Virus record (IMG/VR): IMGVR_UViG_3300025705_000005
Span: 1 to 64,000 of that record
Origin: a virus
Length of the DNA stretch: 64,000 bases
Strand: one strand, 5' to 3'
Position numbers and translations under genes: made by a program. Positions 8,030-52,142 of this stretch are shown here, one piece after another. How positions within the stretch are numbered: the first letter of the stretch is position 1; each line of letters starts with the position of its first letter. Under the pieces are notes generated by a model that was not told the origin of the DNA, did not search any database, and worked only from the letters and a program-made list of their open reading frames with translations.

Positions 8030-8067
8030 TATAAATATACAGTTATTATTATTACCCTTATAAATAT
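8030..8067 (-). promoter_or_regulatory. Two tandem promoter-like motifs upstream of the 501-aa fibre
   Basis: Two copies of ATATTTATAA (8030-8038 and 8059-8067) lie 29 bases apart. Each is followed in the sense direction by a similar AxGGTAATA string. The distal copy overlaps the 3' end of the gene at 8058-8498. This is the only clear doubled copy of the motif in the window. Confidence 0.55.
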
Positions 8068-8498
8068 ATAAAAAAGTTACTACCACTTACTGCGGTATCA
8101 CCTTGTACTCCAGCTGATAAGGTTGCTTTTGATGGTACTTTTAAATCCCCACCATCTCTTACCGATATTCTATCTACATTAAATACACCATCCTTATCAA
8201 CATATACCTTATCAGTACCACCAATTTTTATTGTAAATACATTTTCAGTTGGCGATTGATTTGATACTAAAGTTAATGATGATGTTACTGCTCCAGTTAA
8301 TTCAACTGAACCTGTTATCTGTGCGTTAGTAGTTACAATTGATTCTAATGAATCAGAACCATTATTTTTTTTAAAAAATAACTTACCATCAAATGTATTT
8401 ACAGCAAGCTCACCTAAAGATAAAGAACCTACATCAGGTACTCTACTTTCAGTATCACTTCGTTTTAATTGTATTCTATTTGCTATATTTGATGCCAA
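8058..8498 (-). CDS. Short tail-fibre/tropism-determinant-like protein (146 aa), TTG start
   Basis: The N-terminus RIQLKRSDTESRVPDVGSL followed by LGELAVNTFDGKLFFKK is the widespread phage fibre N-terminal signature (often RRDT...LxxGEIG...TGKL), thought to dock onto the baseplate or fibre base. The rest is beta-rich (VELTGAVTSSLTLVS, GGTDKVYVDKDGVFNVD) and ends without a large tip domain. The start is TTG at 8498, six bases after a strong AGGAG; an ATG is not available in that position. It lies 23 nt after the 399-aa fibre gene. It may be a short fibre or a connector. Confidence 0.75.
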   Translation of the reverse strand: MASNIANRIQLKRSDTESRVPDVGSLSLGELAVNTFDGKLFFKKNNGSDSLESIVTTNAQITGSVELTGAVTSSLTLVSNQSPTENVFTIKIGGTDKVYVDKDGVFNVDRISVRDGGDLKVPSKATLSAGVQGDTAVSGSNFFIYL

Positions 8499-8521
8499 CT
8501 CAATCTCCTAAATAAAATTTA

Positions 8522-14341: not shown

Positions 14342-15976
14342 TTACTGAATTCTGTTTAATGAATCTACATATACTTTACCATAGAACTCACCTCTTAACA
14401 TCTTCTTCGCGTAACGTGTCATAACACCTTTACGTGGAGTGAAGTTTTTAGGGTCATATACTAAAGGAGTCATAATTAACGGAATGTATGGTGCGTAAAC
14501 CGCTCCAGTTTCAAGGAATTGTGTTCCTCTGTAACCCATTAATATTACGTTCTCTTTCATGTAAGGATTCTTATAAACTTGGAATCTACTATTCAATGAA
14601 CCAACTTTTGTTACACCAAACGCAAATTGAGCATCACCATTGTCAGCTGAACTAGCATAACCTGGGATAGATTCAATTATTGTTGCAACATCTGGAGATA
14701 CAACTAAGAAATTAGCTCCACCTCTTAATGTTTTTTGGTGAATAGAGTTAGATACACCAGCAATAACTGTTCCAAGTGTTTGAAACCAATTTTGTTGGTT
14801 GTAAGCAGATGCGGCAACTTCAGCAGCACCCATTGGTGCAAATCCGTTTCCGTCCCATACTCTACCAGCTTGCGCTGACCAGTATCCAGTTGATTTAGCA
14901 TCTTGCATTAACATATCTAAGATTTCAAAATCGATTTCTTGCGAAATGTATTCTGATAACATAGATGTTAATTCAGCTTCTGCATCAATTGAATGATAAG
15001 CGTTTAAATCCTGTGCGAATTCAGGAGTCCATTGTGCTTTCAACTTACGTGTCTTAGCAACAATTGGTAAACTCTTCATTTCAACGTTCAATTCAGGAAT
15101 ATCCAAATCAACACCTTTATCTTCAAAGTCACCTCTAGAGATATCATCTGGTTGTTTGTGGTAAGCTACTTTAACGGTATCAGTTAAGATAGTCGCTGCT
15201 GTTACTTCAGCTACAAACGTTATATCACCATTATCAGCGATTGTAGTATACTGTGGGTATTGGTTAAGAATAGATGTGGTTGAACCAAGTAATCTAAATC
15301 CTCTAATTCCCTTATCATCTGCATTTTCAAATTCAGATGCATCGATTGTAATTTTACATACTGTTCCACCTGCTACCATTTTAGCTGCGTTAGATGCAGA
15401 AAATGCCGTGTCATAGTTGTAATCTATTGGTGATAATGCACCAGTTGCAAAAGTATTTGCAGCAGCATCTGCACCAATTGAATTGTCGCCTGTAGCTACA
15501 TCATTCAATGAGTATCCAAATCTACCTGCACCATACAAACCACCTGATGGGTCTGAAGTAGTTTCAGTAATACCGAATACAGAATCAGCTTGTGAATCTT
15601 TTCCAGAACCACTAGCGAATCCAGCTTGGTTAGTACCATATTTAAAATCTAGATAAAATACTAGACCTGATGGTAAGTTCATTGGTTGTACTGATACGAA
15701 ATCTTTTGCTACGATTTCACTAAAGATTCTTCTTACTAATGGTAATGCTACACCTGCCCACTCTTCTGAGTTTGCTGTAGTACCAGTAGAAGAAGCTTCT
15801 TTTACTAATTGTCTTGCTTGGTTTTCTAAAAGAGTTGCAACGCCTGCTTTTTCAACATCGTTTGCTATTCCTTCTAAAAGACCGGTTTTCTCCCACTTAC
15901 CAGCTAAAGCTCTTGTAGCTTCAGATAGTCTTGCAGTATGAGAAGAACCTTCATTTAAAATGTTTTTTAAATCCAT
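14342..15976 (-). CDS. 23: Major capsid protein, T4 gp23-like (544 aa)
   Basis: HK97-fold shell subunit. The length is close to T4 gp23 (521 aa). The N-terminal about 60 residues are helical and should be removed by the prohead protease; they contain ILNE, RLSE, LLE and LVKE sites, and the best candidate for the final cut is after E60 (LVKE, then ASSTGT), comparable to E65 in T4. The mature part begins with EEWAGVALPLVRRIFSEIVA, a strongly conserved gp23 segment, followed by VSVQPMNLPSGLVFYLDF. AKTRKLKAQWTPEFAQDLNA and GKVYVDSLNRIQ at the C-terminus are also typical. TAGGAGA gives one of the strongest Shine-Dalgarno sites in the window, and a strong terminator follows. Confidence 0.95.
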   Translation of the reverse strand: MDLKNILNEGSSHTARLSEATRALAGKWEKTGLLEGIANDVEKAGVATLLENQARQLVKEASSTGTTANSEEWAGVALPLVRRIFSEIVAKDFVSVQPMNLPSGLVFYLDFKYGTNQAGFASGSGKDSQADSVFGITETTSDPSGGLYGAGRFGYSLNDVATGDNSIGADAAANTFATGALSPIDYNYDTAFSASNAAKMVAGGTVCKITIDASEFENADDKGIRGFRLLGSTTSILNQYPQYTTIADNGDITFVAEVTAATILTDTVKVAYHKQPDDISRGDFEDKGVDLDIPELNVEMKSLPIVAKTRKLKAQWTPEFAQDLNAYHSIDAEAELTSMLSEYISQEIDFEILDMLMQDAKSTGYWSAQAGRVWDGNGFAPMGAAEVAASAYNQQNWFQTLGTVIAGVSNSIHQKTLRGGANFLVVSPDVATIIESIPGYASSADNGDAQFAFGVTKVGSLNSRFQVYKNPYMKENVILMGYRGTQFLETGAVYAPYIPLIMTPLVYDPKNFTPRKGVMTRYAKKMLRGEFYGKVYVDSLNRIQ

Positions 15977-16003
15977 TTTTTTTCTCCTATTAAGTTTATT
16001 AAT

Positions 16004-17005
16004 TTATTTTAAACCAGCTAGCTTTTTCCATCTAGCGGCCATATCATTGCCCTCAGAAATTATTTTCTTTGGTGCTGAACTTTGTGTTGCTTTAGAAGCA
16101 TAACCTTCTTTTACAACAGTTCTTTTCTTTTTCGAAACATTTAAGTTTTCTGCTAATGTTGAGAATACCAATTTCACTTCTCTTACTGATGAAGTTCTAT
16201 CGAAGTTTTCAAGTACTTTTACTTTTTGTCCTTCGTTTAAATCAAAAGTTCTGAATAGTTTGTTAGTATAAAGTAACTTAGCGTTCAACAGATTTACTTC
16301 ATTGATAGTTTTTTGTAAACTTTCAATTGTTAAATAAGCTTCTTCTAATTCATCTTCAACACTTTCTTCTTCAACACTTTCTTCTTCTGATACTTCTTCT
16401 TCTGAATCATCTTCCATTTCTTTCAAAGTTCTAATAACTTCGTCTAAATCGATTTCTTCTTCTTCGTCCATATCATCTTCTTCAGCAACAGCTTCAGCTT
16501 CTTCTGATTCGTAAGTTTCTTCAGCTGATTCTTCATCATCTTCAGATACTTCATCATCAGCCATTTCAGCTTCTAATTCAGCGATTACAGATTCTAAATC
16601 TAAATCATCTTCATCCATATCTTCTTCAGATACTTCTGAATCTTCTTCAGATTCTTCTTCTTCGGTTACTTCTTCATCTTCTGATTCGTAAGCTACTTCA
16701 GCAGATTCTTCATCTTCTTCGGTTACTTCTTCTTCAGCAGGTACTTCTTCTTCACCTTCTAAGTTATCTTCAACTTCTTCTTCAGAACCCATTTCCGAAT
16801 CCATGTCAGCTTCCATTTCTGGTGCTTCCATTTCATCTTCCATTTCATCTTCATCAGCTTCTTCAGCTAATTTTGCAGAAATCATTGATTGTAACTTAGG
16901 TGTGAATGCTTCTTCTAAGGCTAACTTAGCGTTTGCTAGAGCAGTTTCTTTAACGGCTTTAGCATCAGCGATAGCTTCAGATAACAAATCTTTTCTATTT
17001 GCCAT
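16004..17005 (-). CDS. 22: Acidic prohead core scaffold protein, gp22-like (333 aa)
   Basis: Internal scaffold that guides shell assembly and is then degraded by the prohead protease. Residues 1-50 are helical (KDLLSEAIADAKAVKETALAN). Residues about 50-225 are an almost uninterrupted run of Glu, Asp and Ser with EEVSEEDEESAEE-like repeats. Residues 225-290 form a coiled coil (LEEAYLTIESLQKTINEVNL). The C-terminus carries KEG and ISEG sites and ends MAARWKKLAGLK. The acidic low-complexity block is longer than in T4 gp22. The position directly before the capsid gene fits gp22, and the assignment rests on position, composition and protease sites rather than clear homology. A TAGGAGA ribosome binding site is present. 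Confidence 0.85.
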   Translation of the reverse strand: MANRKDLLSEAIADAKAVKETALANAKLALEEAFTPKLQSMISAKLAEEADEDEMEDEMEAPEMEADMDSEMGSEEEVEDNLEGEEEVPAEEEVTEEDEESAEVAYESEDEEVTEEEESEEDSEVSEEDMDEDDLDLESVIAELEAEMADDEVSEDDEESAEETYESEEAEAVAEEDDMDEEEEIDLDEVIRTLKEMEDDSEEEVSEEESVEEESVEDELEEAYLTIESLQKTINEVNLLNAKLLYTNKLFRTFDLNEGQKVKVLENFDRTSSVREVKLVFSTLAENLNVSKKKRTVVKEGYASKATQSSAPKKIISEGNDMAARWKKLAGLK

Positions 17006-17112
17006 AATTATTCTCCTAAATTGTTTTTGGAAATAAGATTATTATAAATCTTAATAGATATTATTTAACTAATATATTTAATCACCTATTGGAAAGTGAT
17101 ATTTTTATCTTC

Positions 17113-17159: not shown

Positions 17160-17426
17160 TTATTCTTCGTTTTGTCTACGTTGCCAATCAGCTCGGACTG
17201 CTAGTTGCATTTTCCTTCTTTTTATTGCTGATGGTTTTAGATATTCTTTACGTTCTTTTAATTCTTCAAGCTTTCCACTTTCTTTCATTTTTCTTTTAAA
17301 TGCTTTTAAAGCTAGTTCGATATTTCCGTTAACTACTCTAACTCCAGTATAACAACCTGGAATCTCCATATCTTCTCTTCTAACTTTTTTGTAAGGTTTT
17401 TTAAATTTGTTTTCGTTATCTTGCAT
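17160..17426 (-). CDS. rpsU: Phage-encoded ribosomal protein bS21 (88 aa)
   Basis: A homologue of the small-subunit protein bS21, which sits near the 3' end of 16S rRNA at the anti-Shine-Dalgarno. Residues 28-86 fit the family: GVRVVNGNIELALKAFKRK, then ESGKLEELKERKEYLKPS and a basic tail AIKRRKMQLAVRADWQRRQ. A 27-residue N-terminal extension (KFKKPYKKVRREDMEIPG) is unusual, because cellular bS21 starts close to the VxV strand. I chose the ATG at 17426 because the upstream alternative codons lie in the terminator hairpin region and lack family similarity. No Shine-Dalgarno precedes it. It lies in the late head-gene cluster, so it is probably made late. Phage bS21 genes are known from aquatic phages, where ribosome takeover has been proposed. 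Confidence 0.88.
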   Translation of the reverse strand: MQDNENKFKKPYKKVRREDMEIPGCYTGVRVVNGNIELALKAFKRKMKESGKLEELKERKEYLKPSAIKRRKMQLAVRADWQRRQNEE

Positions 17427-17446
17427 ATTGTTTTGATAAATGTTTA

Positions 17447-17485
17447 TAAAAAAATACACCTACCACATTGTTGTTGATAGGTGTA
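17447..17485 (-). terminator. Terminator hairpin doubling as bS21 leader structure
   Basis: The sense strand has TACACCTA ... TAGGTGTA (8-bp stem) followed by seven T. It ends the transcript of the 131-aa gene (stop at 17514). A promoter-like motif lies immediately before the stem, so a bS21 transcript starting there would carry this hairpin near its 5' end. Confidence 0.8.
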
Positions 17486-17494
17486 TATAAATAT
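17486..17494 (-). promoter_or_regulatory. Promoter-like motif upstream of bS21
   Basis: The sense strand reads GATATTTATATACACC, abutting the terminator stem. It is 59 nt from the bS21 ATG. Confidence 0.5.
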
Positions 17495-22304: not shown

Positions 22305-24182
22305 TTAAGAATCCAATATGTTTTTTTCATCTAATAATGGTGATGGTGTCTCATTTGTATCAGTTTTTAAAGATTCACGCAACATTTCCTTTGTTTTTAC
22401 TTTAGATTTCATACGTGATACTATCCCTGTAATTTGTTCTTGATTGATAACTGAAGTAGCATTGTATCGTTCATTCTTAGATAAAGATTTGTTACCTAAT
22501 GGGTCTCTACCAAATGGATTTTCATCCGTACCATAGTTACCACCTTCTTTAGGTCTACCTGCTCCATCAAATCCACCTTCTGGCGCCCCACCTTTGTTTT
22601 CACCAAATGGGTCGTTTCCACTATCACCACCACCTTCATCACCACCTTGTTGTAATGTTGCTAAATCATGTGGAGTACCAAATGATTCACCAGTCTTAAC
22701 CGGGTCATTACCTTCTGATTCAATTTGTTCATGTCTGAATCCTAATTTTAAATCATTGATAACTTTGAATTGCTCTTCTTTCCACTCATCTTCACTCATA
22801 TTGAATATATTCTTATAAACCCAATCTTGCGATACCATTTTTAAATCTTTTATATCGCTAGCCAATGAAATCTTTTCAGACCAAAGGTTTGCTTTCTCTT
22901 GCTCATATATAATAGATGGATTGGTAAGTTCTAATTCGAAGTTTACTAATTGGTCATCTGTATATCCTTGCGAATATAAATGTACAATTGCAATCTTAGT
23001 TAATTCTGAAAGTACAATCTTTTGGATTCTTTCTACAGAACGTGCAAATCTAATATCTTCTTGTGCTAATGTAGCTTTTCCTTCTACACCTTCTTCATAC
23101 CCAATAAATGCTTTCGGAACTTTAAGTGCAGCTAACATTCTGTTTCTTAGGTATTCAATATCATCAATACCACCAAACTCCATTCCACTTAGGGAATCAA
23201 TCTCAGTACCACTCTGCCCACCTCTTACAGGTAGATAGTAATCTTCCATCATATTCTGCATATTGAATTTAAGATTGTAATCACCAGTAGTTTCATCGAT
23301 ATAAGGAACTTTTTTCATCTGGTCTATAATAGATGCCATATATGTATCTACTTCTGCAGGTGGAATGTTTCCAATATCAATTTTAAAGATTCTCTTTTCA
23401 GGTGCTCTCATAATTCTATGAATCATCATAGCATCTTCCATAAGAGTTAATTGTTTCCAAGTCTTTCTTGCACCTTCTAATAGTGAACGGCCATAAGGAA
23501 GGAAGTTTGTATCTGTTAATAATCTAAAGTGAGCCACCTGAAACGATTCTAAGAACTTAGTATTGTTTCTTTGTGAAATGGCGTTTGTATTTTGTTCTTC
23601 TACTTCAAATCTTACTGAGTAAGGATTATCTAAATCATATCCTTCTTCTCTACGAGTTTCATAACAAGATAATGGTTGTGCATTTACAACACCTAACTCA
23701 TCATCAATATCTAAGTAAAGATAATAATCACCATATTTGTTCATACCTCTAACCCAAGACCAAAGATTGAACTCAATGTTCAATACATCGTAGAATAAGT
23801 TATGTAATGTTTTCTTTAATTTTTCATCATTAGATTTAATACGGATTACATCACCCATATCATTTTTTAACGTACATTCATCTGAGTATATATCTAAAAT
23901 AGATGAGATAATAGAATCCTTATCCATTGCCTCATAATCTGTATATAGTTCTAACTTATTTGAATGATAATTAAATCTTTCGTTGTATGTTTGCCAATTC
24001 TTTCTTGAGTTAGAACCATGCAATCTACCATACCTATCATAATACGCAGAACCTCTACGATTACCATCAGATTGTAGTCTTGATGAATCTACTACCTTTA
24101 ACTTATCTTTACCAACTCTTCTTACAACTACTTGAGTTGAGAATAATCTCTTTAATCTACCAAATAATGATGTATCTGCCAT
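22305..24182 (-). CDS. 20: Portal vertex protein, T4 gp20-like (625 aa)
   Basis: Dodecameric portal through which DNA is packaged. Residues about 35-470 match the T4-type portal: RRGSAYYDRYGRLHGSNSRK, YTDYEAMDKDSIISSILDIYSDECT, then RTWKQL-type helices and LMEDAMMIHRIMRAPEKRIF, a well conserved segment, followed by VPYIDETTGDYNLKFNMQNM. Compared with T4 gp20 (524 aa) it has a C-terminal extension of about 120 residues, Gly/Asn/Asp/Pro-rich (GGDEGGGDSGNDPFGENKGG) and then helical and basic. That tail carries LRES near the end, a possible protease site. Its promoter-like motif is exactly 31 nt upstream. There is no strong Shine-Dalgarno; the stretch before the ATG is A-rich. Confidence 0.94.
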   Translation of the reverse strand: MADTSLFGRLKRLFSTQVVVRRVGKDKLKVVDSSRLQSDGNRRGSAYYDRYGRLHGSNSRKNWQTYNERFNYHSNKLELYTDYEAMDKDSIISSILDIYSDECTLKNDMGDVIRIKSNDEKLKKTLHNLFYDVLNIEFNLWSWVRGMNKYGDYYLYLDIDDELGVVNAQPLSCYETRREEGYDLDNPYSVRFEVEEQNTNAISQRNNTKFLESFQVAHFRLLTDTNFLPYGRSLLEGARKTWKQLTLMEDAMMIHRIMRAPEKRIFKIDIGNIPPAEVDTYMASIIDQMKKVPYIDETTGDYNLKFNMQNMMEDYYLPVRGGQSGTEIDSLSGMEFGGIDDIEYLRNRMLAALKVPKAFIGYEEGVEGKATLAQEDIRFARSVERIQKIVLSELTKIAIVHLYSQGYTDDQLVNFELELTNPSIIYEQEKANLWSEKISLASDIKDLKMVSQDWVYKNIFNMSEDEWKEEQFKVINDLKLGFRHEQIESEGNDPVKTGESFGTPHDLATLQQGGDEGGGDSGNDPFGENKGGAPEGGFDGAGRPKEGGNYGTDENPFGRDPLGNKSLSKNERYNATSVINQEQITGIVSRMKSKVKTKEMLRESLKTDTNETPSPLLDEKNILDS

Positions 24183-28609: not shown

Positions 28610-29194
28610 TTATGCTCCGTTATTTTTTAGCTTATCTATAAAGTTTTCTTTAAAGGTTTTAAATTCGTTATCAATTTTTTCTACCACTTCTTCTTCTGTC
28701 ATTCCTTCATTCCATTTTTCAATAGAACCATCTTCATTTATAAAAGATGCTTGAAGAGTTGATTTAATAACTTCCTTTTCCATCTCAGCTTGTTTTAACC
28801 AAGCTTCGGCGTTTGCTAGTAACTTTTTCTTTTCATACTCTTCGTACTTACCATCTAATTTTAATTGATGTTCCATTTCTACAACACAATTTAAACACAT
28901 ACCATGTATAGCTTTCATTTTTAAATCAGCTCTACTTGGTTCTGTAGTAGTACAAGTTTCTTTGTTGCAATTAGGAAATGAATTTAACTCTTCTCTGAGT
29001 TTAGCCATTTTCCCAATCTTAACTTTGTAACCATTTCGTTGTTCCCACTTTTGATTTTTATCATCAATCCAAGTTTCTCCAACTTCACGTCTTTCAACGA
29101 CTTTATCAGCAAATGAGATGCTTTTTTTAGTTTGGGTTTTGTGTTGCCCACTTAACATTTCACTTACTGCTTTAATATTTTTTAACTTTGCCAT
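28610..29194 (-). CDS. Conserved protein with a probable zinc-binding site (194 aa)
   Basis: Residues 1-70 are basic and include ERREVGETWIDDKNQKWEQR, a short beta-rich motif. Residues 75-110 hold NCNKETC and then MCLNCVVEME, spaced like a four-Cys zinc ribbon. The C-terminal 80 residues are helical and acidic (EEYEKKKLLANAEAWLKQAE, then TEEEVVEKIDNEFKTFKENF). The family name is not known to me, although proteins of this type recur in T4-like phages. The gene begins 14 nt after a promoter-like motif and is followed at once by the 594-aa gene. Nucleic-acid or protein binding is a possibility. Confidence 0.7.
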   Translation of the reverse strand: MAKLKNIKAVSEMLSGQHKTQTKKSISFADKVVERREVGETWIDDKNQKWEQRNGYKVKIGKMAKLREELNSFPNCNKETCTTTEPSRADLKMKAIHGMCLNCVVEMEHQLKLDGKYEEYEKKKLLANAEAWLKQAEMEKEVIKSTLQASFINEDGSIEKWNEGMTEEEVVEKIDNEFKTFKENFIDKLKNNGA

Positions 29195-32448: not shown

Positions 32449-35400
32449 TCAATTTTGCACCAGTCCCTGTCCACTACGAGTAGTCAGAGTGTATGTTTGT
32501 AATAGTAACCCAAAGCTTGAGTAGCCCGATGTAATTGCACCATCATCAAATTGTATCCCATCATCTTGAATAGATAATTCTAATCTAGCAATATCATCTG
32601 ACCCAGCGTTTGTTGGGAATAATATATCATTTATTACATATGGTGGTGCTACCTGTAATGTTAAATTCATTGTTACACTTCCACCCAAAGAACCATCTAA
32701 AACTAATGTAGTGTGGCCACTAACTGTTTGATAATAAGAACCTGAATTTGCACTATTAACATTTACAAACTTTTCAACAATATTAGTTGCGGTTACGAAT
32801 CCTTCTTTAGTTACTTCAAAACCAGGACTTACAAAACCACCTAATTTCATAGAACCACTATCTAAACTTATAACTGAACCCTCATTAGGTGATAGGTTAA
32901 GTGATTGTAGTTCACCAGTCTTAATTTGCCTTCCACCAATTTGTGTTCCAAGGTTTGTTTTTGGTTTTATTACTAAATCTCTAACATACGCAGAGTTAAG
33001 TCCATTCCCAGACCAATTTAATATATTCATTGAAAAGAATTCAGTCCCTGCTGATGGGGTGTAATTCGTTTGATATGTAATCCATTCTTGTGGCCAATAA
33101 GAACCATTTAAGTTATTACTTACATTACCTACACCAGCTGAACCTGATATTTTTGTCCAACTTAAAGTAGCTTCACCACTAGTACTAAGGGAACCTGGTT
33201 CTGAATTACTGCTGTTGGCATATGAAGCATGGGTTATAAATTTTACACCATCTTCTCGTGCACTTGCATCATTAGATTCATACACTCTTAGATACATACC
33301 TGTTGTACCTGATGTATAGTTGGTAGCACCACCTTTAACAGTTATTGTTATTCTATATGCAGATGCTTCCTTTTTTATAATTTTGGTTGCCATTCCAATA
33401 GTAGTATCCCCAGGGTTGGATAATTCTACAACTTTACCAATAGTACCCCCGAAATCACTAAATTTTATATTACTTGCGACATTATTCCCATATGTTGAAA
33501 AGAAATCTGCAGGTCTACCATCCAATGCGCTAATACCAGCCGATGGGTTTGTTATTTCGTTAAATAGATTTTCTACAGCTTCAGCAGGGTCACCAAGTGT
33601 AATTGCATTCCCATCCGCATCCAAAACAGAGATAGCTCCAGTTACTTGTACTGCCCCACCACTATCTATTTCGAAATTAGGAGTACTGATTTCTAATTTA
33701 CCAGCAGTATGATTAAATCTCATGTAATTACCACCAAGTTCACCAACTGCGAATTTAGCATTTGGTCCATCTAATAATATACCTTTTTCTGTAGTGTATG
33801 CCCCAGTACCACCAATTTTCATTACACCATCATTAAGATATAACGCAGTACCTGTATCGGTTGATAAGTTGTTTGATTTTATAGTACCTGTTGTAATTGA
33901 ATCACCACTAATTCTACTTGTACCACCAGAACTAAATTCTTTTATTTTTATATAATCAACATGCGTTATACCCTGCGTATCATTGTAGTTCAATAATAGA
34001 TATGCTGATATGAATCCATTATTGATTTCAGCTCTCAACGTTCCAGGATTAGTTTTATCATCGTGCATCGTAGTATCACCATTTGAACCACCTGTTCTTG
34101 TTGCTCCTTTGAAATAACCTTTGAATGTTTGGAAATACCCAGTACCATTACCAGTACCTAAATTATTAGATGATAGAGTAATATAATGACCTGAAGTATT
34201 ATTATTCCCATCATAACCAACTCTAGTTACACCATCTGATTGCATTCCGTTTATACCAACATATGCTCTTGTATTAGATGTACCAGCCGTTCTTTTGATT
34301 CTAACTTCTACCTCATATAATGATGATTCATTAAATGGTATCAATGTATTAGAAATTATATTTGCTTCATCATCACCACTATTGTTTCCTACAACAAGCG
34401 CTTTACCTGAAATACAATCCGTATCTGCCTCTAATGATGGAGTAGAACTACTCGCCCCTTTGTTCCAAAACCAAGCATCACCTGTCCCATCCATCTTTGG
34501 AGCATTACCACCATTTGTATCACCTACAGCTGAGTATTGTGAGAAATCATCAAAGAATACTACATTACCATCTCCGTTATCAGGTCTACCTCTAAAGGTT
34601 ACATCACCTGCGATTTCTACGTTTCCATTCGAACCACTAATATATTGTGAAGTTCCACTTCCTAATAAGAACTTATCTACTTCTATATTTGCGTTTGAAC
34701 CACTAATTAATAATGATTTATTAGTATTGTTCCATGCTAAGTAACCATCGCTTGGATTACTTGCTCCACTAGCATTTCCACCTAAGTAAAAATTACCACC
34801 ACTATCTAAGAATGATGTGAAATCTGCTAATGTTGCGGTTGTTCCACTACCAATTGCCCCATGATATCCAAATACATCTGAGTTCATTAGTAAACCTGCT
34901 GCTAACGTACCTTGTACTCCACTTAATGATGCATCTAAGAATGAGAAGTCTTGATTGTTTGCTCCTTGGTCTCCCTGCGGTCCAGCTTTAGATTTAGCTA
35001 TTGAGTAAGTTTTAGATATTGAAACACCACCACTAACAGCTGTAAGTATTACAGAACCACTATCGGGTGTTAATGCTGAAATTGTTAGTACTCTGTTACT
35101 GATTGTTGCAGTGAGGTCTGTTGAGTTTTGGTTTGTTACAGTATAATTAGATGATACGTTTGTTACACCTTCATATATAAACATTTCAGTACCACTACCA
35201 TTAAATGATGAAACAGTTCCATCATTAGCAGCTGGAACTACATCAGCTTCAGATGTTAGGAATGCCGTTACTGCATCTACCCCACCAGCACCAGCTGCGC
35301 CAGGTTGAACTGCTACAATTGTAACTGTATCAAATGTTAATTCAGTTGTTGAATCAGCTGCTTCAGATACACTAACTGTAATTGTTTTTGGAGTTGAGAA

Positions 35401-38400
35401 ATATGATGATGGAATTGTGAAGTTTTTTGTATCACCATTTGCTGATACTCCATTTGTATATGTAAGTTCATCTGTTATACCATCGCCTGTAAATTTAAAG
35501 TACCCATCTGTAAAGTTTTGTGAATTTGCTGATAATGTAATTGTACCACTTGGTGAAGGGTTTAACCCATCTGCATCATATGTTACAACATTAGTTGCCG
35601 CAGTTAATGATACAGTTTTAGAACCAGACCCGGCTGCTCCTGGAGCTCCATCAGTACCTGCTCTAGATTTAACTAATGACATTGTTTTATCAATCTTTAC
35701 AACCCCAGTTGATAAATTACCACTACCATCTTTTACTTCTTTAATTTCAATATAATCTAATCTAACTACTCCGTTGTTGGTAGGGTGACTAGCTATAAAC
35801 ATTGGTGATATATAAGTTGCGTTTGTATGGATAGTTTTTGGATTATTAATATCAGGAGATTCACCACTATTAGTTGCACTTGATGCACCATGACCTGAGA
35901 AATATCCTCTCTTAGTTACCCAATCTGTACCTTCGTTTTCACCAAATGAAAACCCAGCTGCAGCTATATAATGTTGACTACTAAAAGTATTGCTACCAAC
36001 TACGTTACGTTTTGTGCTTTCATTACTCCAACCATTTACACCAACATAAACTGTTCCAGTACCAGAAACTCTTTTAAACCTAGCTTCAATATAATAAGTT
36101 TTAGTATCATCATAAGCAAATATATCTTTACCTGCTATCCAAACCCTATCATTATCAGCATTATTACCAAATTCAACATAGTTGTTTCTTAATTCACCAT
36201 CACCTGAACCAATACTTATAGTATCAGGATTATCAACTAAGTGCCAATCGTTATCAGTTCCATTAATATCACCAGCACCCCCAACAAGAAATTGTGAGGT
36301 AGCCCAATCTTCACCAGTTCTACTTCCCCAACCACTATGATGGATACCACCACTAATTGCAGTGATTATTACAGAACCACTATCGTGATTCATATTTGTA
36401 ACATTTAAGGATGATGAATTAAATGAGTTAAAATCGTTATCAACAGTAATGCCTGTATTGGATACTCCATTGATAAAGTAGTTTGTTGTTTTATCTGTTA
36501 CACCTTCAAAAATTGTAACATCAGTTTCTGCTCCTACATATGATGGAACTAAACCATCAGCACCTGCTGCTAATGTGTGTGATTCGTTACCTACTATAAC
36601 AGTAATAGCATCAGTACCCGATGTACCATCTGCTCCACCATCTAAGGCGAATATTTTAAATGAATCACTTAAAGATCCTGATGTTACTGTTATCGTTATT
36701 GGGTATTTAGCTTTAGGAGATGGTGAGTTTGTATTAAATACTAAACTACCACTTATTACTCCACTATTATTTGGTAATGAAGTAGGGGCAAATGTAGGTA
36801 CATTATGACTACCACCAACTGCATCTATAATTGTTATATCAGATGCCGTTAAAGTTTTTCCTAAATTTTGTTGAGTAATAAATAACTCAATTGTTGTATC
36901 ATCAGGTGTTGTTGCTGATGCTGATGCAAACGCAAATACTTGTGAATCACCAGTTAATGATATTAAGGATGCTGATGTTCCTGGCGCTCCATCTGAACCA
37001 TCATCTCCTTGCAGTGCTTGTGATATAGACATCAATTTAGTTAATACAACTGAACCTGATGTTGCTGTAATTTCAACTGAACCACTAAATGGAGTTGTTG
37101 AATTTGTTATTGTTACAGTATCACCACTAGTCGTTGTTGTAATATGAGATGAAATTGAACCAGTGTTTATAGTATAATCATTGGTTACATTTGATGTACC
37201 TTGAAATACTAAAATATCTGTACTTGCTCCTGCGAATGATATTACATCACCTGATGAACTTACAGGAAGTGTATGTGAATCGTTAGTTAATAATGCCGTT
37301 ATTGCTGATACACCTGATGTACCATCTGAACCACCCTCAACTTTAAATATTTTTACTGCGTCTTGAAGTGAATCTTTTGTTGCTGATATGGTTAGTGGGA
37401 ATTTTGATTTATCACTACCCATACCACCAGCATTTGTATTCCCTGCAAATGATACTGAACCACTTACTATACCCGTACCACTAACAGCGTCTGTATTATC
37501 AAATGTAAAGTTTGTAATATTACCACCACCATTCATTTGTATTGTAACATCACTTGCTGAAATAGGTGCTACTAAATTCTGTTGTTGAAAACTAAATTCT
37601 ATAGAAGATGGAGTTGCTGATGTATCTATAACATCATCGAATGCCATAACCTGTGAATCTAAACTACCAATAAGTAATTTAGCAGATGTTCCATCTGAAC
37701 CATCAGGCCCTTGTTTGGATTTAACCAAACTCATTATTTTATCTATACTTACACTACCACTTGAAGCGTTTATATTAACATAAGCGCTATCAGCTGTCAT
37801 CGTTGATATGGTAACTGTGTTTCCACTATCCGATGCACTTACCCCAGCACCATTAGATGATGATATAACATAATTAGAAGTTACATTTGTGATTCCTTCA
37901 AATACTTCCATATCCGTAGAACCACCCGCAAATACTGCAATTGAGCCAGATGAATCAGCTGCGAATGTATGTGATTCGTTTGTAAGGAAAGCAATTACTG
38001 CATCCGTTCCATCTACTCCATCTCCACCACCATCAATTTTAAATATTTTTAAACTATCTTCTAATCCATCTTTAGATACTTCAATCGTAATCGGTAACTT
38101 ACTTTTGGTGGATGAAAGAGTTGTATTGAATGTTATACTACCACTAACTTGACCTGTTCCATCTGTTACACTTGCAACAAATGCTGGGTCTGCTAAGGTG
38201 TTTCCACCTGAATCTTTTATTGTTATATCACCAGCATCTATAGTACCACTTAAATTTTGTTGGTTAACAATAATCAATACATCATTATCTATTGGTGTAT
38301 TAGATGATGCTGATGGGAATGAGAATACTTGTGAATCTGATGATAGTGATAACAACTTAGCAGCTGCTCCTGGTAAACCAGCAGTACCCTGCTTTGATTT

Positions 38401-41400
38401 AGAAAGTGTCATCGTTTTAGATAATGATACCGATTCACTAACTGCTGTTATAATAACCGAACCACTATCGTGTGCCATCGATGTGATTGTTACAGTGTTA
38501 CCACTTATAGATGAACTTACAGATGTTGTTGAATCTTTACTAAAAGTATATTCTGAATTCTTATTTGTAGTCCCTTCGAACACTTCCATATCAGTAACTG
38601 CTCCAACGAATGATACTACAGTTCCATCATTTTGTGAAGGTAACGTATGAGATTCATTGGTTAGGAATGTAGTTACTGCATCCACACCACCTACCCCATC
38701 ACTACCACCTTCTACTTTAAATATTGTTACGGAATCCGTTAGAGTATCATTTGTACAAGATATGGTTAATGGTAAACTAGTCTTAGCTCCATTTAAACCA
38801 CCACTACTAAATCCACCTGTATATGAAACGCTACCACTTACTATACCACTTTTTTGGTTTGTGGGCCCACCTACACTATTATTGTTGAATGAGAAGTTTG
38901 TAACATTATTACTATCTGCGGTGGTGATTGTTATATCACTACTTACAATAACATCATTTAAGTTTTGTTGAGAAAATGAGAAGTTAATTGTACCTGGCGT
39001 TGCTGAGTTATCTGTTGAATCATCAAATGCGAATATCTGAGAATCTACACTTCCTATTAATGTTTTTGCGTTATCACCACTTACACCCGGAGTTCCATCC
39101 TGGCCATCATCACCTTGTCTAGTAATACCAATCGACATTATTTTTGATAATGATACCGATTCACTAACTGCGGTTATTGTAACTGAACCACTATATGGTG
39201 ATGTGGTATTTGTTATCGTAAACGCATTTGATGATGAAGTTACCGTTATATATGCTGCTGAACTTTCTGTAAATGAATAGTTTGATGTTTTATCTGTAAT
39301 ACCCTCAAATACTTTCATTTGAGTGTCAGCTCCTGCATATGATTGAATTGCGCCTGAACTACTCAATGGTAGTGTGTGTGATTCATTTGTTAAAAATGCC
39401 GTTACTGCATCTACACCAGCAGCACCATCCGAACCAGGTTGTAATCCAAATAATGTTAAACTATCAGTTGATGCGGCTGTTCCACCAGAAGAACCTGTAA
39501 ATGCTCTTACTTCATATGTTTTAGGAGTAGATGAAGTTGGTTTCTCCAATGCAGTATTAACAGTGAATGTGTTTGTTGTACTTCTACTTCCTTGAATGGT
39601 AGCATCTTTATAAAATTCATAATACACATCACCTATAAAGTTTTGTGGTGTTGCGGTTAGTGTTATTGTTTGACCAGATGGTGCTTCATCTCCAAACTCA
39701 TCAAATGTTACTACATATTTATCAGCTGATAGTTCTACTGTTCGTGCTATAGAACCACTTGATACATTATCAATTGCCGTTTCAACGGATGTTCCATCTG
39801 CGAAGTTTAACTGCCCAGTGATTGATAATGTAGATGTTGATGGATTCCAAGATAGTTTATTACCTAATGAGAATTGAGAACCTGAATCTACATAGAACCC
39901 AGTATTAGCATTATTATAAGCCCCATGTATTCCAGTAAATAATTTACCATCAGCCATACTAATTCCACCGATAGAACCTGTTTTTGCAATTATACCACCT
40001 TGAAGGAATACATTATCGGTTGCTAATCCAAACCCTGGATTTGAATTACCAAACACATAATCTGAATTTGCCAATCCACTTAAATCACCTAATCTTACTT
40101 TTAACGCTACATCGTATAATCCACTACCTGTTCTTTCAACAACATCCATATATGGTGTATTCACATCATTTGGATTTGCGTTCATTTTGATATAACCAGT
40201 ATTTAATTTACCAGTCGAAACAATAACTTGCCCATCTTCGTATGATTGAGCTGCTGAACCTAAATCACCAACGAATTCACCTTGAGAACCACTTCCGTAT
40301 GCTCTCTGTACCATTATTCTACCATAGGTTTCATCTTCATTCGAACCATCACTATCTATTGATGCTGAATTTAATAAAACATATTCTGTTTGGAAACCTG
40401 TATTATCTACTTTCTTTATAAGGAGTATTTCACCTTGAGAGAATCCACTAGCGTTCTTTACAGACATCGTAGTTTCTGTGTCTGTTAACGAACCAGTAAT
40501 TGTTGTTGAGTTAGCTACCCATAATTGTCCACCAACTGCGTTTACAGATTCTTTTTCAAAAGTTGTTGTTCTTAACGTACCTCTAATTCTTACGTTTTCA
40601 AATTCTGCAGTTCCATTTCCTTCAGATGAAATCTTCCACCCTTTTAATCCACTTGCGAAATCTCTAGTTTGTAAGATACCTTCAGGTTTCATTATAAGGT
40701 TTCCACCTTCTATAGAACCCGTTGTAATACCCCAACCACCAATCGATGCTGATACGAATCTTGCGAAACCATCTGCTTTGATAGATGAGGATGAGTTTGT
40801 TTCAGTAGATGCTGCGCCATTTATTAATGCTGGTGTTTTTATATTTTCTACAGTTAAATCTGATAGAATTGTTGCGTTCGCTCCAATTATTAAACTACCT
40901 TCTCCACTATTTGCTTTAGGGTCTAAGTGAAATATAGATGAACTAATTTCAATATTACCATCCGAACCACTTATGTATTGTTCGGTTAGATTACCAATAA
41001 AGAACTTATCAGTTTTAACATCTAAAATACCACCATTTGCTGTTGAGAATACAAGGTGTCTGTCATCGTTATCTCCAACGAACTGCATACCAACACCTAA
41101 TAGCTGGTCTTCACCAAATACAAGATTACCCGAACCACTATAGATTACGAATCCACCTGGTGCTTTTCCTAATGATGCTGAAGTTATACCTCTGTATCCA
41201 ACGGAACGCATGAATCCACTACTAGAACCACCAATTTCAATACCAGTTCCTAATGTATTGGATATAAAAATAGAACCACTAATTAAGTTCTCTTCACCAC
41301 CAATGTAAACTTGCTCACCATCAAATACAAATGGCTCTGATATTGTTTCAGTTCTTGATATACTACCCTCAGCGTTTAAATATAATAACTTTAGTATCTT

Positions 41401-42486
41401 AGGGTCATTTAAGTTTTTAGAAGGAATAGGTACTTTTATATGTGCTGTAGAGCTATATGGTATTGATACTTCATTTAGTAATTCAAAGTCTGCAGATAAT
41501 CCTTCTGATTTAGCTAATATTTTAATTTTATCTACAACACCAGTTATAGGGTCTATGTTACTGAATTGTAAATCTACAAAGTTTCGTTTGTTTTGTGTTA
41601 CTGTATTAGAACCACTCTTAATATATTGTATTTTATAATCTGCTTCAGATACAGATTCGTATGTATGTGTTAAATCTTCTCTACCAGCAAATGATGTTGT
41701 AAAGTTTGTTAATGTCTTTACATATGTACTATTTAATAATTTTTCAATTGATGAACTAAAGAATGTAGAACTCTCTGGTCCTTCAATATTAGCTACAGGG
41801 AATGCTGGTTCTGTAAAGTTATTCAGAATTATAGTTCCACCAATCATTTCAGAATTGAATGTAGAACTATCAGCAATTTGAATTACAGGCGTTGTACCAC
41901 TAAATAAATACTTCGCCTTACCAGTCTGAACTGTTTGTGTTAATGTGTTATTGGTTTGTGCTTGGTTTTCGTATGGTTCTACACTTTGAGAAACTACTAC
42001 GCTTGGTACGTTAGTAGGATTAAATATAATCTCTGATGAATTATTTCTATCTCTATCTACATTTAATGTAGTTTGCCATTTAACGTTTATCTTACCTCTC
42101 TGATTAGGTGGTAGTGGATTTCCGTTTAAATCAACGTTAGCAATACCTAATAGAGTAATAGTAGCCTCGCCATTTGGAGTGTTATCAATACCCTTATCGT
42201 TATAAATCCATATAGATATTACTCTACTTTTATCAGCTTCTAAATAATCAGGAATCTCAAAGTATATAGGTTGTCCGTTAGAATCTCTAACATCGACATA
42301 TATTTGAGTACCATCCACTAAGTTAGTTGGATGAGCAGTAATTCTTAATAAGTTTTTACCTTTTTGTAAAACCTGTGGGACATCAGAAACTCTAAAGTAC
42401 TTAGTTGAACGCTGACTATCATCAACGATGAACGTTTGTATATCTTTTAAGTTCTCTCTGTCTGAAAATTTATATTCTAAGGACAT
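32449..42486 (-). CDS. Giant multi-domain tail fibre/adhesin (3345 aa)
   Basis: Residues 1-190 form an attachment domain (SLEYKFSDRENLKDIQTFIV, then YLEADKSRVISIWIYNDKG). About 190-1000 carries strands and SGSxGNIEISSS segments. From about 1030 to 2500, two Ig-like modules alternate: type A contains (F/L)LTNESHTLP...VFEG and appears six times, type B contains DSQ(V/I)FAF...QQNL and appears at least five times, with collagen-like linkers (GDDGQDGTPG, QGPDGSDG, AGTDGAPG) between them. A lectin-like module (about 2045-2255) interrupts one A module, and two related modules lie at about 2630-2855 and 2970-3180. The C-terminus ends with a beta-rich cap. TAGGAGA precedes the ATG. This is likely the main long host-binding fibre; its size is far larger than T4 gp37 (1026 aa). 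Confidence 0.82.
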   Translation of the reverse strand: MSLEYKFSDRENLKDIQTFIVDDSQRSTKYFRVSDVPQVLQKGKNLLRITAHPTNLVDGTQIYVDVRDSNGQPIYFEIPDYLEADKSRVISIWIYNDKGIDNTPNGEATITLLGIANVDLNGNPLPPNQRGKINVKWQTTLNVDRDRNNSSEIIFNPTNVPSVVVSQSVEPYENQAQTNNTLTQTVQTGKAKYLFSGTTPVIQIADSSTFNSEMIGGTIILNNFTEPAFPVANIEGPESSTFFSSSIEKLLNSTYVKTLTNFTTSFAGREDLTHTYESVSEADYKIQYIKSGSNTVTQNKRNFVDLQFSNIDPITGVVDKIKILAKSEGLSADFELLNEVSIPYSSTAHIKVPIPSKNLNDPKILKLLYLNAEGSISRTETISEPFVFDGEQVYIGGEENLISGSIFISNTLGTGIEIGGSSSGFMRSVGYRGITSASLGKAPGGFVIYSGSGNLVFGEDQLLGVGMQFVGDNDDRHLVFSTANGGILDVKTDKFFIGNLTEQYISGSDGNIEISSSIFHLDPKANSGEGSLIIGANATILSDLTVENIKTPALINGAASTETNSSSSIKADGFARFVSASIGGWGITTGSIEGGNLIMKPEGILQTRDFASGLKGWKISSEGNGTAEFENVRIRGTLRTTTFEKESVNAVGGQLWVANSTTITGSLTDTETTMSVKNASGFSQGEILLIKKVDNTGFQTEYVLLNSASIDSDGSNEDETYGRIMVQRAYGSGSQGEFVGDLGSAAQSYEDGQVIVSTGKLNTGYIKMNANPNDVNTPYMDVVERTGSGLYDVALKVRLGDLSGLANSDYVFGNSNPGFGLATDNVFLQGGIIAKTGSIGGISMADGKLFTGIHGAYNNANTGFYVDSGSQFSLGNKLSWNPSTSTLSITGQLNFADGTSVETAIDNVSSGSIARTVELSADKYVVTFDEFGDEAPSGQTITLTATPQNFIGDVYYEFYKDATIQGSRSTTNTFTVNTALEKPTSSTPKTYEVRAFTGSSGGTAASTDSLTLFGLQPGSDGAAGVDAVTAFLTNESHTLPLSSSGAIQSYAGADTQMKVFEGITDKTSNYSFTESSAAYITVTSSSNAFTITNTTSPYSGSVTITAVSESVSLSKIMSIGITRQGDDGQDGTPGVSGDNAKTLIGSVDSQIFAFDDSTDNSATPGTINFSFSQQNLNDVIVSSDITITTADSNNVTNFSFNNNSVGGPTNQKSGIVSGSVSYTGGFSSGGLNGAKTSLPLTISCTNDTLTDSVTIFKVEGGSDGVGGVDAVTTFLTNESHTLPSQNDGTVVSFVGAVTDMEVFEGTTNKNSEYTFSKDSTTSVSSSISGNTVTITSMAHDSGSVIITAVSESVSLSKTMTLSKSKQGTAGLPGAAAKLLSLSSDSQVFSFPSASSNTPIDNDVLIIVNQQNLSGTIDAGDITIKDSGGNTLADPAFVASVTDGTGQVSGSITFNTTLSSTKSKLPITIEVSKDGLEDSLKIFKIDGGGDGVDGTDAVIAFLTNESHTFAADSSGSIAVFAGGSTDMEVFEGITNVTSNYVISSSNGAGVSASDSGNTVTISTMTADSAYVNINASSGSVSIDKIMSLVKSKQGPDGSDGTSAKLLIGSLDSQVMAFDDVIDTSATPSSIEFSFQQQNLVAPISASDVTIQMNGGGNITNFTFDNTDAVSGTGIVSGSVSFAGNTNAGGMGSDKSKFPLTISATKDSLQDAVKIFKVEGGSDGTSGVSAITALLTNDSHTLPVSSSGDVISFAGASTDILVFQGTSNVTNDYTINTGSISSHITTTTSGDTVTITNSTTPFSGSVEITATSGSVVLTKLMSISQALQGDDGSDGAPGTSASLISLTGDSQVFAFASASATTPDDTTIELFITQQNLGKTLTASDITIIDAVGGSHNVPTFAPTSLPNNSGVISGSLVFNTNSPSPKAKYPITITVTSGSLSDSFKIFALDGGADGTSGTDAITVIVGNESHTLAAGADGLVPSYVGAETDVTIFEGVTDKTTNYFINGVSNTGITVDNDFNSFNSSSLNVTNMNHDSGSVIITAISGGIHHSGWGSRTGEDWATSQFLVGGAGDINGTDNDWHLVDNPDTISIGSGDGELRNNYVEFGNNADNDRVWIAGKDIFAYDDTKTYYIEARFKRVSGTGTVYVGVNGWSNESTKRNVVGSNTFSSQHYIAAAGFSFGENEGTDWVTKRGYFSGHGASSATNSGESPDINNPKTIHTNATYISPMFIASHPTNNGVVRLDYIEIKEVKDGSGNLSTGVVKIDKTMSLVKSRAGTDGAPGAAGSGSKTVSLTAATNVVTYDADGLNPSPSGTITLSANSQNFTDGYFKFTGDGITDELTYTNGVSANGDTKNFTIPSSYFSTPKTITVSVSEAADSTTELTFDTVTIVAVQPGAAGAGGVDAVTAFLTSEADVVPAANDGTVSSFNGSGTEMFIYEGVTNVSSNYTVTNQNSTDLTATISNRVLTISALTPDSGSVILTAVSGGVSISKTYSIAKSKAGPQGDQGANNQDFSFLDASLSGVQGTLAAGLLMNSDVFGYHGAIGSGTTATLADFTSFLDSGGNFYLGGNASGASNPSDGYLAWNNTNKSLLISGSNANIEVDKFLLGSGTSQYISGSNGNVEIAGDVTFRGRPDNGDGNVVFFDDFSQYSAVGDTNGGNAPKMDGTGDAWFWNKGASSSTPSLEADTDCISGKALVVGNNSGDDEANIISNTLIPFNESSLYEVEVRIKRTAGTSNTRAYVGINGMQSDGVTRVGYDGNNNTSGHYITLSSNNLGTGNGTGYFQTFKGYFKGATRTGGSNGDTTMHDDKTNPGTLRAEINNGFISAYLLLNYNDTQGITHVDYIKIKEFSSGGTSRISGDSITTGTIKSNNLSTDTGTALYLNDGVMKIGGTGAYTTEKGILLDGPNAKFAVGELGGNYMRFNHTAGKLEISTPNFEIDSGGAVQVTGAISVLDADGNAITLGDPAEAVENLFNEITNPSAGISALDGRPADFFSTYGNNVASNIKFSDFGGTIGKVVELSNPGDTTIGMATKIIKKEASAYRITITVKGGATNYTSGTTGMYLRVYESNDASAREDGVKFITHASYANSSNSEPGSLSTSGEATLSWTKISGSAGVGNVSNNLNGSYWPQEWITYQTNYTPSAGTEFFSMNILNWSGNGLNSAYVRDLVIKPKTNLGTQIGGRQIKTGELQSLNLSPNEGSVISLDSGSMKLGGFVSPGFEVTKEGFVTATNIVEKFVNVNSANSGSYYQTVSGHTTLVLDGSLGGSVTMNLTLQVAPPYVINDILFPTNAGSDDIARLELSIQDDGIQFDDGAITSGYSSFGLLLQTYTLTTRSGQGLVQN
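35240..39400 (-). repeat. Coding repeat array in the giant fibre, about 700-bp period
   Basis: Six copies of the NESHTLP-type module start near 39390, 38650, 37980, 37275, 36575 and 35250. The spacing is about 670-730 bases except for the last interval, about 1325, which contains the inserted lectin-like module. Positions are approximate; identity between copies is partial at the protein level. Confidence 0.75.
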
Positions 42487-42540
42487 TCATTTCTCCTACT
42501 GTTTCTACTTTATATATAAGTATGAAAAATACACTTATAA

Positions 42541-51037: not shown

Positions 51038-52129
51038 TTAGTATCTTTGTTTTCTATCCTCTTTATCATACTTCACACATAAATCTTCTTCGGTGTTATC
51101 ACCACCCAAAGATTTTCTTAATACATCTAAAATCTCTCTTTTTTCTTCGTAATTTTCGAATGGAGATTTCTGTGATGGTCTGATAAGTATATCCGTTTCT
51201 TTAGTTGCTGATTGAGAATCAAAATCGGATTCATCACTTTCAACTATATCTCTATGTGGAACTATTGGTCTACCTAAACGGATTTCCATTTGCTTCATTT
51301 CTTTAATAGTTCGTTCTATCTTATTTAAACCATCTAACTCAGGATTTCTTTGTATCTTCTCCTGCTGTTCTATAATTATCTCTTCTTCTAAAAAAGTTGA
51401 AACGTTTTTTTCTGTTTTTGTATTTGTAAGCATTTTAACTTCTTTTTGCTTTCTTAACTTCTCTTCTTCAAGACGCTTAACCATTTTATCTTTTAGAGCT
51501 TTCTTCTGTTGTAATATCAATTCAGCATTACGAATAGATTCTGCTTTAATCTTATCAATATCCTTATCCTTTATAGATTTTTCTCCTACAATATCTGGAT
51601 ACTTCTTTTTAAGATATATATCGAAATCAATTCTCATTTGCTTCAATTCTTCTCTGAACATTTCTCTTCTCTTAATCTCATCTTGAAAAGCTTCTTGTAT
51701 CTTTAAGAATCGTTCATCTTCAATCTCCCTACGTTCAACTTCTTCTATATATATCCTACGCTTATCTTCTTCGTTATAATCTTTAACATCTAATACTGGG
51801 TCTGACAGGATTTCTTCTGCTTTTGGATTTAGTATATCATGTATAATTGAATCTACACTACCATCCAATGTAGGTAATGGTTTTACTAAGTTGATTAAAT
51901 CTTTTTCTTTTACCTTATCATCTTTAGTGATTACTATATTGTCCTTTAAAGGTTTTCCTATTTTTATTAAAACTTCAGGATCTTTTATTGCCTTAGATAT
52001 CTTAGTAGATTCATCAACGTTTCTTTTAGGGTCTTTAATTAATGGTCTAGATATACGCTCGCTCATTCGTTTATCGATTAGTTTATTTAATCGATTACCA
52101 CTGTCTCTTATATTTCTTCTACTTGCCAT
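51038..52129 (-). CDS. Long charged coiled-coil protein of the baseplate module (363 aa)
   Basis: Almost entirely Lys/Glu/Arg/Asp-rich with heptad-like repeats (RRIYIEEVERREIEDERFLK, RREMFREELKQMRIDFDIYL, KALKDKMVKRLEEEKLRKQK), so a long alpha-helical rod is expected. The N-terminal 90 residues are basic (ASRRNIRDSGNRLNKLIDKR) and the C-terminus is polar. It has no transmembrane segment. A strong TAGGAGA ribosome binding site is present, and the gene follows the 1479-aa wedge gene with a 13-nt gap. A structural spacer, or a chaperone for the large neighbour, is possible. No family was recognised. Confidence 0.72.
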   Translation of the reverse strand: MASRRNIRDSGNRLNKLIDKRMSERISRPLIKDPKRNVDESTKISKAIKDPEVLIKIGKPLKDNIVITKDDKVKEKDLINLVKPLPTLDGSVDSIIHDILNPKAEEILSDPVLDVKDYNEEDKRRIYIEEVERREIEDERFLKIQEAFQDEIKRREMFREELKQMRIDFDIYLKKKYPDIVGEKSIKDKDIDKIKAESIRNAELILQQKKALKDKMVKRLEEEKLRKQKEVKMLTNTKTEKNVSTFLEEEIIIEQQEKIQRNPELDGLNKIERTIKEMKQMEIRLGRPIVPHRDIVESDESDFDSQSATKETDILIRPSQKSPFENYEEKREILDVLRKSLGGDNTEEDLCVKYDKEDRKQRY

Positions 52130-52142
52130 ATCTTATCTCCTA

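What the first reader, a model, noticed from the sequence alone, without database searches (positions are those of the whole stretch)
17160..17494. Late phage-encoded bS21 with an N-terminal extension, combined with selective strong Shine-Dalgarno sites
The 88-aa protein is clearly bS21-like. In Bacteroidota, bS21 with neighbouring proteins is reported to occlude the anti-Shine-Dalgarno. In this window only about five genes carry a TAGGAGA site (starts 15976, 17005, 8498, 42486, 52129), including capsid, scaffold and giant fibre, while most others have weak A-rich leaders. A phage bS21 that changes anti-Shine-Dalgarno access late in infection could favour exactly those mRNAs. Phage bS21 has been described; linking it to this split in ribosome binding sites within one genome is my inference.
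Basis: partly seen in the sequence, partly recalled or inferred. Interest (0 to 1): 0.8.

Follow-up and report, generated by a model that had tools for sequence, protein, structure and literature searches.

The report
Phage bS21 heading capsid transcription unit
This phage carries its own copy of a small ribosomal protein at the head of its capsid genes and marks the capsid and scaffold genes with classical ribosome-binding sites, but the evidence suggests its host already uses such sites, so the proposed late translation switch is not needed.

Summary
Observation mostly confirmed. 17160-17426(-) encodes an 88-aa bS21 with an N-terminal extension, and five genes carry TAGGAGA sites. The sites are part of a graded Shine-Dalgarno (SD) spectrum, not a clean split; only those of capsid and scaffold are conserved among relatives.

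The window belongs to the Far-T4 phages. In 120 non-redundant relatives, bS21 and an SD before the capsid gene co-occur (65 both, 45 neither, 10 mixed), but on the tree this is only about five changes.

The phage has Arg at that position. So do many cells of the same phylum, and those cells use SD: 112/538 genes with Arg54, against 7/357 with Tyr54. Relatives G001 and Mel-JY01 carry the promoter grammar of Arg54 hosts (TTG-N20-TAnnTTTGT), not that of Tyr54 hosts. The simplest account is a phage matched to an SD-using host, with SD placed on abundant late proteins.

A late switch in a Tyr54 host is not excluded (about 12%). New here: the residue-54/SD correlation, the Arg54 phage variant, and a conserved promoter-like box and covarying hairpin before an SD-less bS21.

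The parts
17160..17426 (-). phage bS21, 88 aa; N-terminal extension with KVRREDMEIPGC motif; Arg at the Tyr54 position (residue 78)
   Evidence: PF01165 E 1.4e-12; alignment to F. johnsoniae 7jil chain and to relatives
17455..17485 (-). hairpin TACACCTATC...GGTAGGTGTA, followed by T7 (17448-17454); conserved and covarying upstream of bS21
   Evidence: 97% of cells paired, 13 cells changed on both sides, 0/500 shuffles as high; slid controls 27-48% paired
17486..17494 (-). ATATTTATA box, candidate phage late promoter -10 element
   Evidence: TATTTATA nearly or fully invariant in 21 relatives; TATTTATA occurs upstream of 12 window genes on the coding strand against 0 for the reverse orientation
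16004..17005 (-). probable capsid scaffold (acidic, just upstream of the capsid gene)
   Evidence: position and composition; no Pfam or PHROG match
17012..17018 (-). TAGGAGA SD of the scaffold gene
   Evidence: SD conserved in orthologues of 12 of 13 bS21-positive phages or groups, absent in immuto
14342..15976 (-). major capsid protein, gp23 family
   Evidence: PF07068 E 1.4e-77
15983..15989 (-). TAGGAGA SD of the capsid gene
   Evidence: conserved in 65 of 69 bS21-positive relatives, absent in 45 of 51 bS21-negative ones
8504..8510 (-). TAGGAGA SD of gene 8058-8498 (TTG start, weak tail-fibre similarity)
42492..42498 (-). TAGGAGA SD of the 3345-aa ORF 32449-42486
52136..52142 (-). TAGGAGA SD of ORF 51038-52129 (363 aa, no family)
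   Evidence: not conserved in orthologues

Best explanation
The window is the late region of a Far-T4-type phage of a Bacteroidota-lineage host whose own bS21 carries Arg54, so its anti-SD is not sequestered and SD sites work normally. Shown by sequence: bS21 is the first gene after a candidate late promoter box and a covarying hairpin, followed on the same strand by scaffold and capsid, both with conserved SD, while bS21 has none. Inferred: these three genes form one late transcript; phage bS21 is made without the SD-based feedback that controls host rpsU, enters new or exchanging 30S subunits, and keeps or biases initiation capacity for phage mRNA while capsid proteins are made in bulk. The SD sites are ordinary host-type signals placed on the most abundant late proteins; bS21 is not a switch that makes them readable.
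For: bS21 family match and Arg at position 54. In 40 sampled cell genomes of the phylum, SD at 5-9 nt occurs in 112/538 genes with Arg54 and 7/357 with Tyr54, Mann-Whitney p = 3.6e-6. Close relative phages have a similar SD level (16-31% of genes against 6-8% internal background). Host-type promoters: spacing exactly 20 in G001 (8-9 sites), G002 (5-6) and Mel-JY01 (17-20), as in Arg54 cells (17 sites at 20) and unlike Tyr54 cells (broad 18-22, maximum 19); T follows TTTG in G001, Mel-JY01 and most Arg54 cells, mostly C in Tyr54 cells. Controls with Tyr54-type hosts or bS21 show no SD use: immuto (no bS21) 3.4% against 16.8%, phages with unextended Tyr54 bS21 mostly at background. bS21-first order, promoter-like box and hairpin. 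Phage bS21 can enter ribosomes in another system (Pelagibacter phage HTVC008M protein in E. coli, PMC6375957).
Against: The host of the window itself is not identified; its 74-kb record holds no host-type promoter. The core of its bS21 (residues 10-50) is not clearly closer to Arg54 cells (50.5% against 48.0% identity, but a lower BLOSUM score, 87 against 96). Outside its late block, G002 has SD at background level (9/121), lower than expected if its host reads SD throughout. Phe/Tyr54 members of the family also use SD, so phage residue 54 does not always report the host. The 40 cell genomes are related to each other, so the p-value overstates independence, and they were drawn from the better matches to the phage protein.
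Confidence: 0.6

Rival explanations
1. One reading: the host is a Tyr54 Bacteroidia cell with a blocked anti-SD; the phage Arg54 bS21 replaces host bS21 late, frees the anti-SD like the Y54A mutant, and so favours SD-bearing scaffold and capsid mRNAs over host mRNAs.
For: Arg at 54; Y54A in F. johnsoniae raises SD-reporter translation about 3-fold (PMC9976891); SD denser in the late block of G001, G002, G009 and near absent from genes behind host promoters in G001 (1 of about 12 distinct genes, many leaderless); bS21 core slightly closer to Tyr54 cells by BLOSUM score; marine Far-T4 often predicted to infect Flavobacteriales (PMC13037479).
Against: Promoter spacing and flanking base fit Arg54 cells; Mel-JY01 puts SD on genes behind host promoters; Phe/Tyr54 family members use SD too; in F. 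johnsoniae only very strong SD responded (rpsU below about -13 kcal/mol, or AGGAGGU) and a 4-nt AGGA did not, while these sites reach only about -7.
Confidence: 0.12
2. The phage bS21 is a spare part: it only restores bS21 lost or limiting in infected cells and has no effect on mRNA choice; SD use is unrelated to it.
For: bS21 presence and SD change only about 5 and 7 times on the capsid tree, so their association may be one historical coincidence; relatives L350-L375 lack bS21 in the contigs searched, one of them 297 kb, yet keep AGGA before the capsid gene.
Against: Retention of bS21 next to scaffold and capsid across very divergent relatives and the conserved N-terminal motif suggest a specific role.
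Confidence: 0.2
3. The N-terminal extension, not residue 54, changes mRNA handling: it reaches the mRNA/SD helix and favours SD-bearing or A-rich phage leaders.
For: The extension with a basic stretch and [ILV]PG-like motif is common to most SD-using family members with Arg, Phe or Tyr54, and is absent from the unextended Tyr54 phages that lack SD; L069 and L074, bS21-positive but without capsid SD, lack the motif.
Against: Mel-JY01, L303, L304, L178, L184 and L185 lack the motif and use SD; L083 has the motif but no capsid SD. The trait follows one phage lineage.
Confidence: 0.08

Closest known systems
Phage bS21 of freshwater Bacteroidetes phages (Chen et al. 2022, PMC9723584)
   Same: bS21 near capsid, portal, protease and terminase genes; late role proposed; bS21 replacing host copy proposed
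   Different: There all 61 proteins keep an aromatic residue at 54 and the gene lies on the opposite strand; here Arg54, same strand as scaffold and capsid, N-terminal extension, and SD use in the genome
Autoregulated rpsU of Flavobacterium johnsoniae (McNutt et al. 2023, PMC9976891)
   Same: same protein family; residue 54 and anti-SD access central
   Different: Host rpsU has an extended SD (below -13 kcal/mol); the phage gene has none and starts behind a hairpin
Far-T4 phages (Roux et al. 2015, PMC4360716; Tominaga et al. 2020, PMC7198788)
   Same: gp23 capsid related to Rhodothermus phage RM378 (37% over 99%), gp20-like portal, terminase, PhoH
   Different: no mention of S21 or Shine-Dalgarno found in a text search of the 2015 paper
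Pelagibacter phage HTVC008M bS21 (Mizuno et al. 2019, PMC6375957)
   Same: phage-borne bS21, shown to enter E. coli ribosomes
   Different: different host phylum; the window protein has no tblastn match in the phage collection

Membership tests
Ribosomal protein bS21 (PF01165) | profile match over the curated cut-off across the domain | tested here: met
   47.5 bits against 27, profile positions 2-53 of 55
Ribosomal protein bS21 (PF01165) | incorporation into the 30S subunit | not testable with these tools
   shown only for another phage protein in E. coli (PMC6375957)
Bacteroidetes bS21 phages of Chen et al. | aromatic residue at the Tyr54 position | tested here: not met
   Arg78 aligns with Tyr54
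Bacteroidetes bS21 phages of Chen et al. | bS21 on the strand opposite to capsid and terminase genes | tested here: not met
   bS21, scaffold, capsid, portal, terminase all on the minus strand
Bacteroidetes bS21 phages of Chen et al. | late transcription with structural genes | not testable with these tools
   no RNA data; candidate late box only
SD-autoregulated rpsU | extended SD before the bS21 start codon | tested here: not met
   leader pairing +2.0 kcal/mol; rpsU of Arg54 cells often -9 to -13.5
Far-T4 phages | g23, g20, g17 and PhoH with an RM378-side capsid | tested here: met
   capsid, portal, terminase, PhoH; nearest cultured capsids Mel-JY01, immuto, RM378
Phage of a host with blocked anti-SD (Bacteroidia) | host with Tyr54 bS21 and SD-poor genes | tested here: inconclusive
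   promoter grammar of relatives fits Arg54 cells; bS21 core ambiguous

The most novel reading that the evidence does not exclude
The host is a Tyr54 Bacteroidia cell that cannot read SD; the phage Arg54, N-extended bS21 converts its ribosomes late in infection into SD-reading ones, so that the conserved SD on scaffold and capsid become a phage-only code: a specialised viral ribosome.
Probability: 0.12. Interest if true: 0.88.

Novelty: new variant of a known kind. Interest (0 to 1): 0.5.

Why it matters
If the host-matched reading holds, one residue of a ribosomal protein separates SD-reading from SD-avoiding cells across a phylum, and phages follow the host; this would make residue 54 of cellular bS21 a sequence-only predictor of how a host starts translation. 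If the switch reading holds instead, a virus would reprogram mRNA choice by swapping one ribosomal protein. Both are testable with an established F. johnsoniae system.

Tried and rejected
Loss of Tyr54 as the sole determinant of phage SD use: rejected inside the family, because Phe/Tyr54 members use SD. Presence of the PG-like N-terminal motif as the determinant: not clean. Phylogenetic test of bS21 against capsid SD: strong raw association, but only about 5 bS21 changes and too few independent pairs for significance. Early genes SD-less as a general rule: holds in G001, fails in Mel-JY01. Host from MAG co-binning of the capsid gene: 5 of 12 hits in Flavobacteriales bins, 3 from one bin, so weak. 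Cultured relatives by bS21 tblastn: none for the window protein. The phage-promoter search first used TATAAATA; the coding-strand form is TATTTATA, so the 'late promoter' counts are not used. No structure prediction was run.

Full report
What is there. The window is positions 1-64000 of a 74,485-base virus record. Nearly all genes lie on the minus strand. ORF 17160-17426(-) gives 88 residues and matches Ribosomal_S21 over residues 29-79 at 1.4e-12. Downstream on the same strand are a 333-aa acidic protein (16004-17005, probable scaffold by position and composition) and the gp23-like major capsid protein (14342-15976; PF07068, 1.4e-77). Portal, terminase, prohead protease and PhoH are also present. 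The capsid is nearest, among cultured phages, to Mel-JY01 (60%), Flavobacterium phage immuto (55%) and Rhodothermus phage RM378 (37%), which places it among Far-T4 phages (PMC4360716, PMC7198788).

The SD sites. TAGGAGA is no more frequent than chance in the window (7 against 7.95 expected), but five of the seven stand just before gene starts 8498, 15976, 17005, 42486 and 52129. They are the top of a gradient: 14 of 34 late genes carry AGGA, GGAG or GAGG at the right place, with motif ends peaking 6-9 nt before the start. In relatives only capsid and scaffold sites are kept: the letters around them change (TAGGAGA, ACGGAGA, AAAGGAGA) while the site stays.

Association with bS21 in the family. 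Among 120 non-redundant capsid relatives, 65 have bS21 and a capsid SD, 45 have neither, 6 have SD without bS21 and 4 bS21 without SD; one of the four, L328, has AAGGA too close to the chosen start and may be miscalled. The bS21-negative capsid leaders of the immuto clade are nearly free of G. However, bS21 changes only about five times on the tree and independent pairs are too few for a test. The raw table must not be read as 120 independent cases.

SD use over whole genomes. With internal ATGs as control, close relatives have SD in 16-31% of leaders against 6-8% background; immuto has 3.4% against 16.8%. Phages with an unextended Tyr54 bS21 mostly show none (0-10% against 4-10%), with one partial exception, the 735-kb LR756501 (16% against 9%). 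In G001, G002 and G009 SD is denser within 8 kb of late-gene homologues than elsewhere (p = 0.0013, 1.3e-5, 0.0054); over five Arg54 genomes, without capsid and scaffold, the Mantel-Haenszel odds ratio is 2.6, p = 6e-8; no such split in Mel-JY01, G005 or immuto. The genes are not independent, so these p-values are guides.

Residue 54. In F. johnsoniae, Tyr54 of bS21 stacks on A1534 and helps hide the anti-SD; Y54A raises translation of SD reporters (PMC9976891). All 61 phage proteins of Chen et al. keep an aromatic residue there (PMC9723584). The window protein has Arg: QLAVRADW against QKAAYIQT. Most near relatives have Arg; other subclades have Phe or Tyr.

The test that decided most. I sampled cells of the phylum of a Flavobacteriales bin and read bS21 and 20-kb stretches. 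In 24 genomes with Arg54, 112 of 538 genes have an SD 4-mer ending 5-9 nt before the start; in 16 genomes with Tyr54, 7 of 357. So inside this phylum (GTDB sense) there are two kinds of cell, and Arg54 goes with SD use. The sample favours genomes that match the phage protein.

Which kind is the host? Cells with Arg54 have promoters with exactly 20 bases between TTG and TAnnTTTG (17 sites, other spacings 0-4) and mostly T after TTTG; Tyr54 cells have a broad 18-22 with maximum 19 and mostly C. G001, G002 and Mel-JY01 show the sharp 20, and G001 and Mel-JY01 the T. This points to Arg54, SD-using hosts for the clade. The window itself holds no such promoter, being mostly late genes. Against this, the bS21 core of the window is about equally near to both kinds, and published predictions for marine Far-T4 lean to Flavobacteriales (48% of predictions, PMC13037479), although the immuto clade alone could cause that.

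Early against late. If phage bS21 opened the anti-SD, genes read before it should lack SD. In G001, 1 of about 12 distinct genes behind host promoters has SD and many start almost at the promoter (leaderless); in Mel-JY01 about half have SD. The prediction holds in one phage and fails in another.

The bS21 gene's own control region. In 21 relatives a conserved TATTTATA stands about 60 bases before the start. This box occurs upstream of 12 window genes on the coding strand and 0 in reverse, which fits a phage late promoter. It is followed by a hairpin with 97% of cells paired and 13 doubly changed cells (0 of 500 shuffles as high; slid controls 27-48% paired) and a T run. Whether the hairpin ends upstream transcripts or protects the 5' end of the bS21 transcript cannot be told. 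The bS21 leader has no SD, whereas rpsU of Arg54 cells often has one of -9 to -13.5 kcal/mol. I infer that the phage gene escapes the SD-based feedback described for host rpsU.

Conclusion. Best reading: a host-matched, late-made bS21 that leads a bS21-scaffold-capsid unit, with ordinary SD on abundant proteins (0.6). Steps shown: gene, residue, SD sites and their conservation, hairpin, box, cell correlation. Steps inferred: host type, common transcript, incorporation, any effect on mRNA choice.

Noticed in passing
PP395634.1 (Microcystis phage Mel-JY01), loci L124-L133: About 17-20 intergenic TTG-N20-TAnnTTTGT sites, a Bacteroidota-type promoter, and a Far-T4 capsid with bS21: the recorded host Microcystis is doubtful; a Bacteroidota companion of the culture may be the real host.
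   Followed up: partly
window, 12 gene-upstream places, e.g. 17486-17494, upstream of 22305-24182 and 28610-29194 (minus strand): Strand-specific ATATTTATA box upstream of genes in all Far-T4 genomes examined, a candidate late promoter.
   Followed up: partly
G001 loci L093-L098: Many genes behind host-type promoters start 2-7 bases after the TAnnTTTG element, so their mRNAs would be leaderless.
   Followed up: no
loci L192-L221 (phages with Tyr54 bS21): A different motif, TTGA-N19-TAnnAT, is sharply enriched (25 sites against about 4 at other spacings); some loci are near-duplicates.
   Followed up: no
L190, LR756501.1 (735-kb phage): Phage rpsU with a host-like extended SD (AAAGGAGGATAA, -11.8 kcal/mol), unlike the other phage bS21 genes.
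   Followed up: no
loci L350, L352, L360-L363, L371-L375: Far-T4 relatives with AGGA before the capsid gene but no bS21 found in the records searched, one of them 297 kb.
   Followed up: partly
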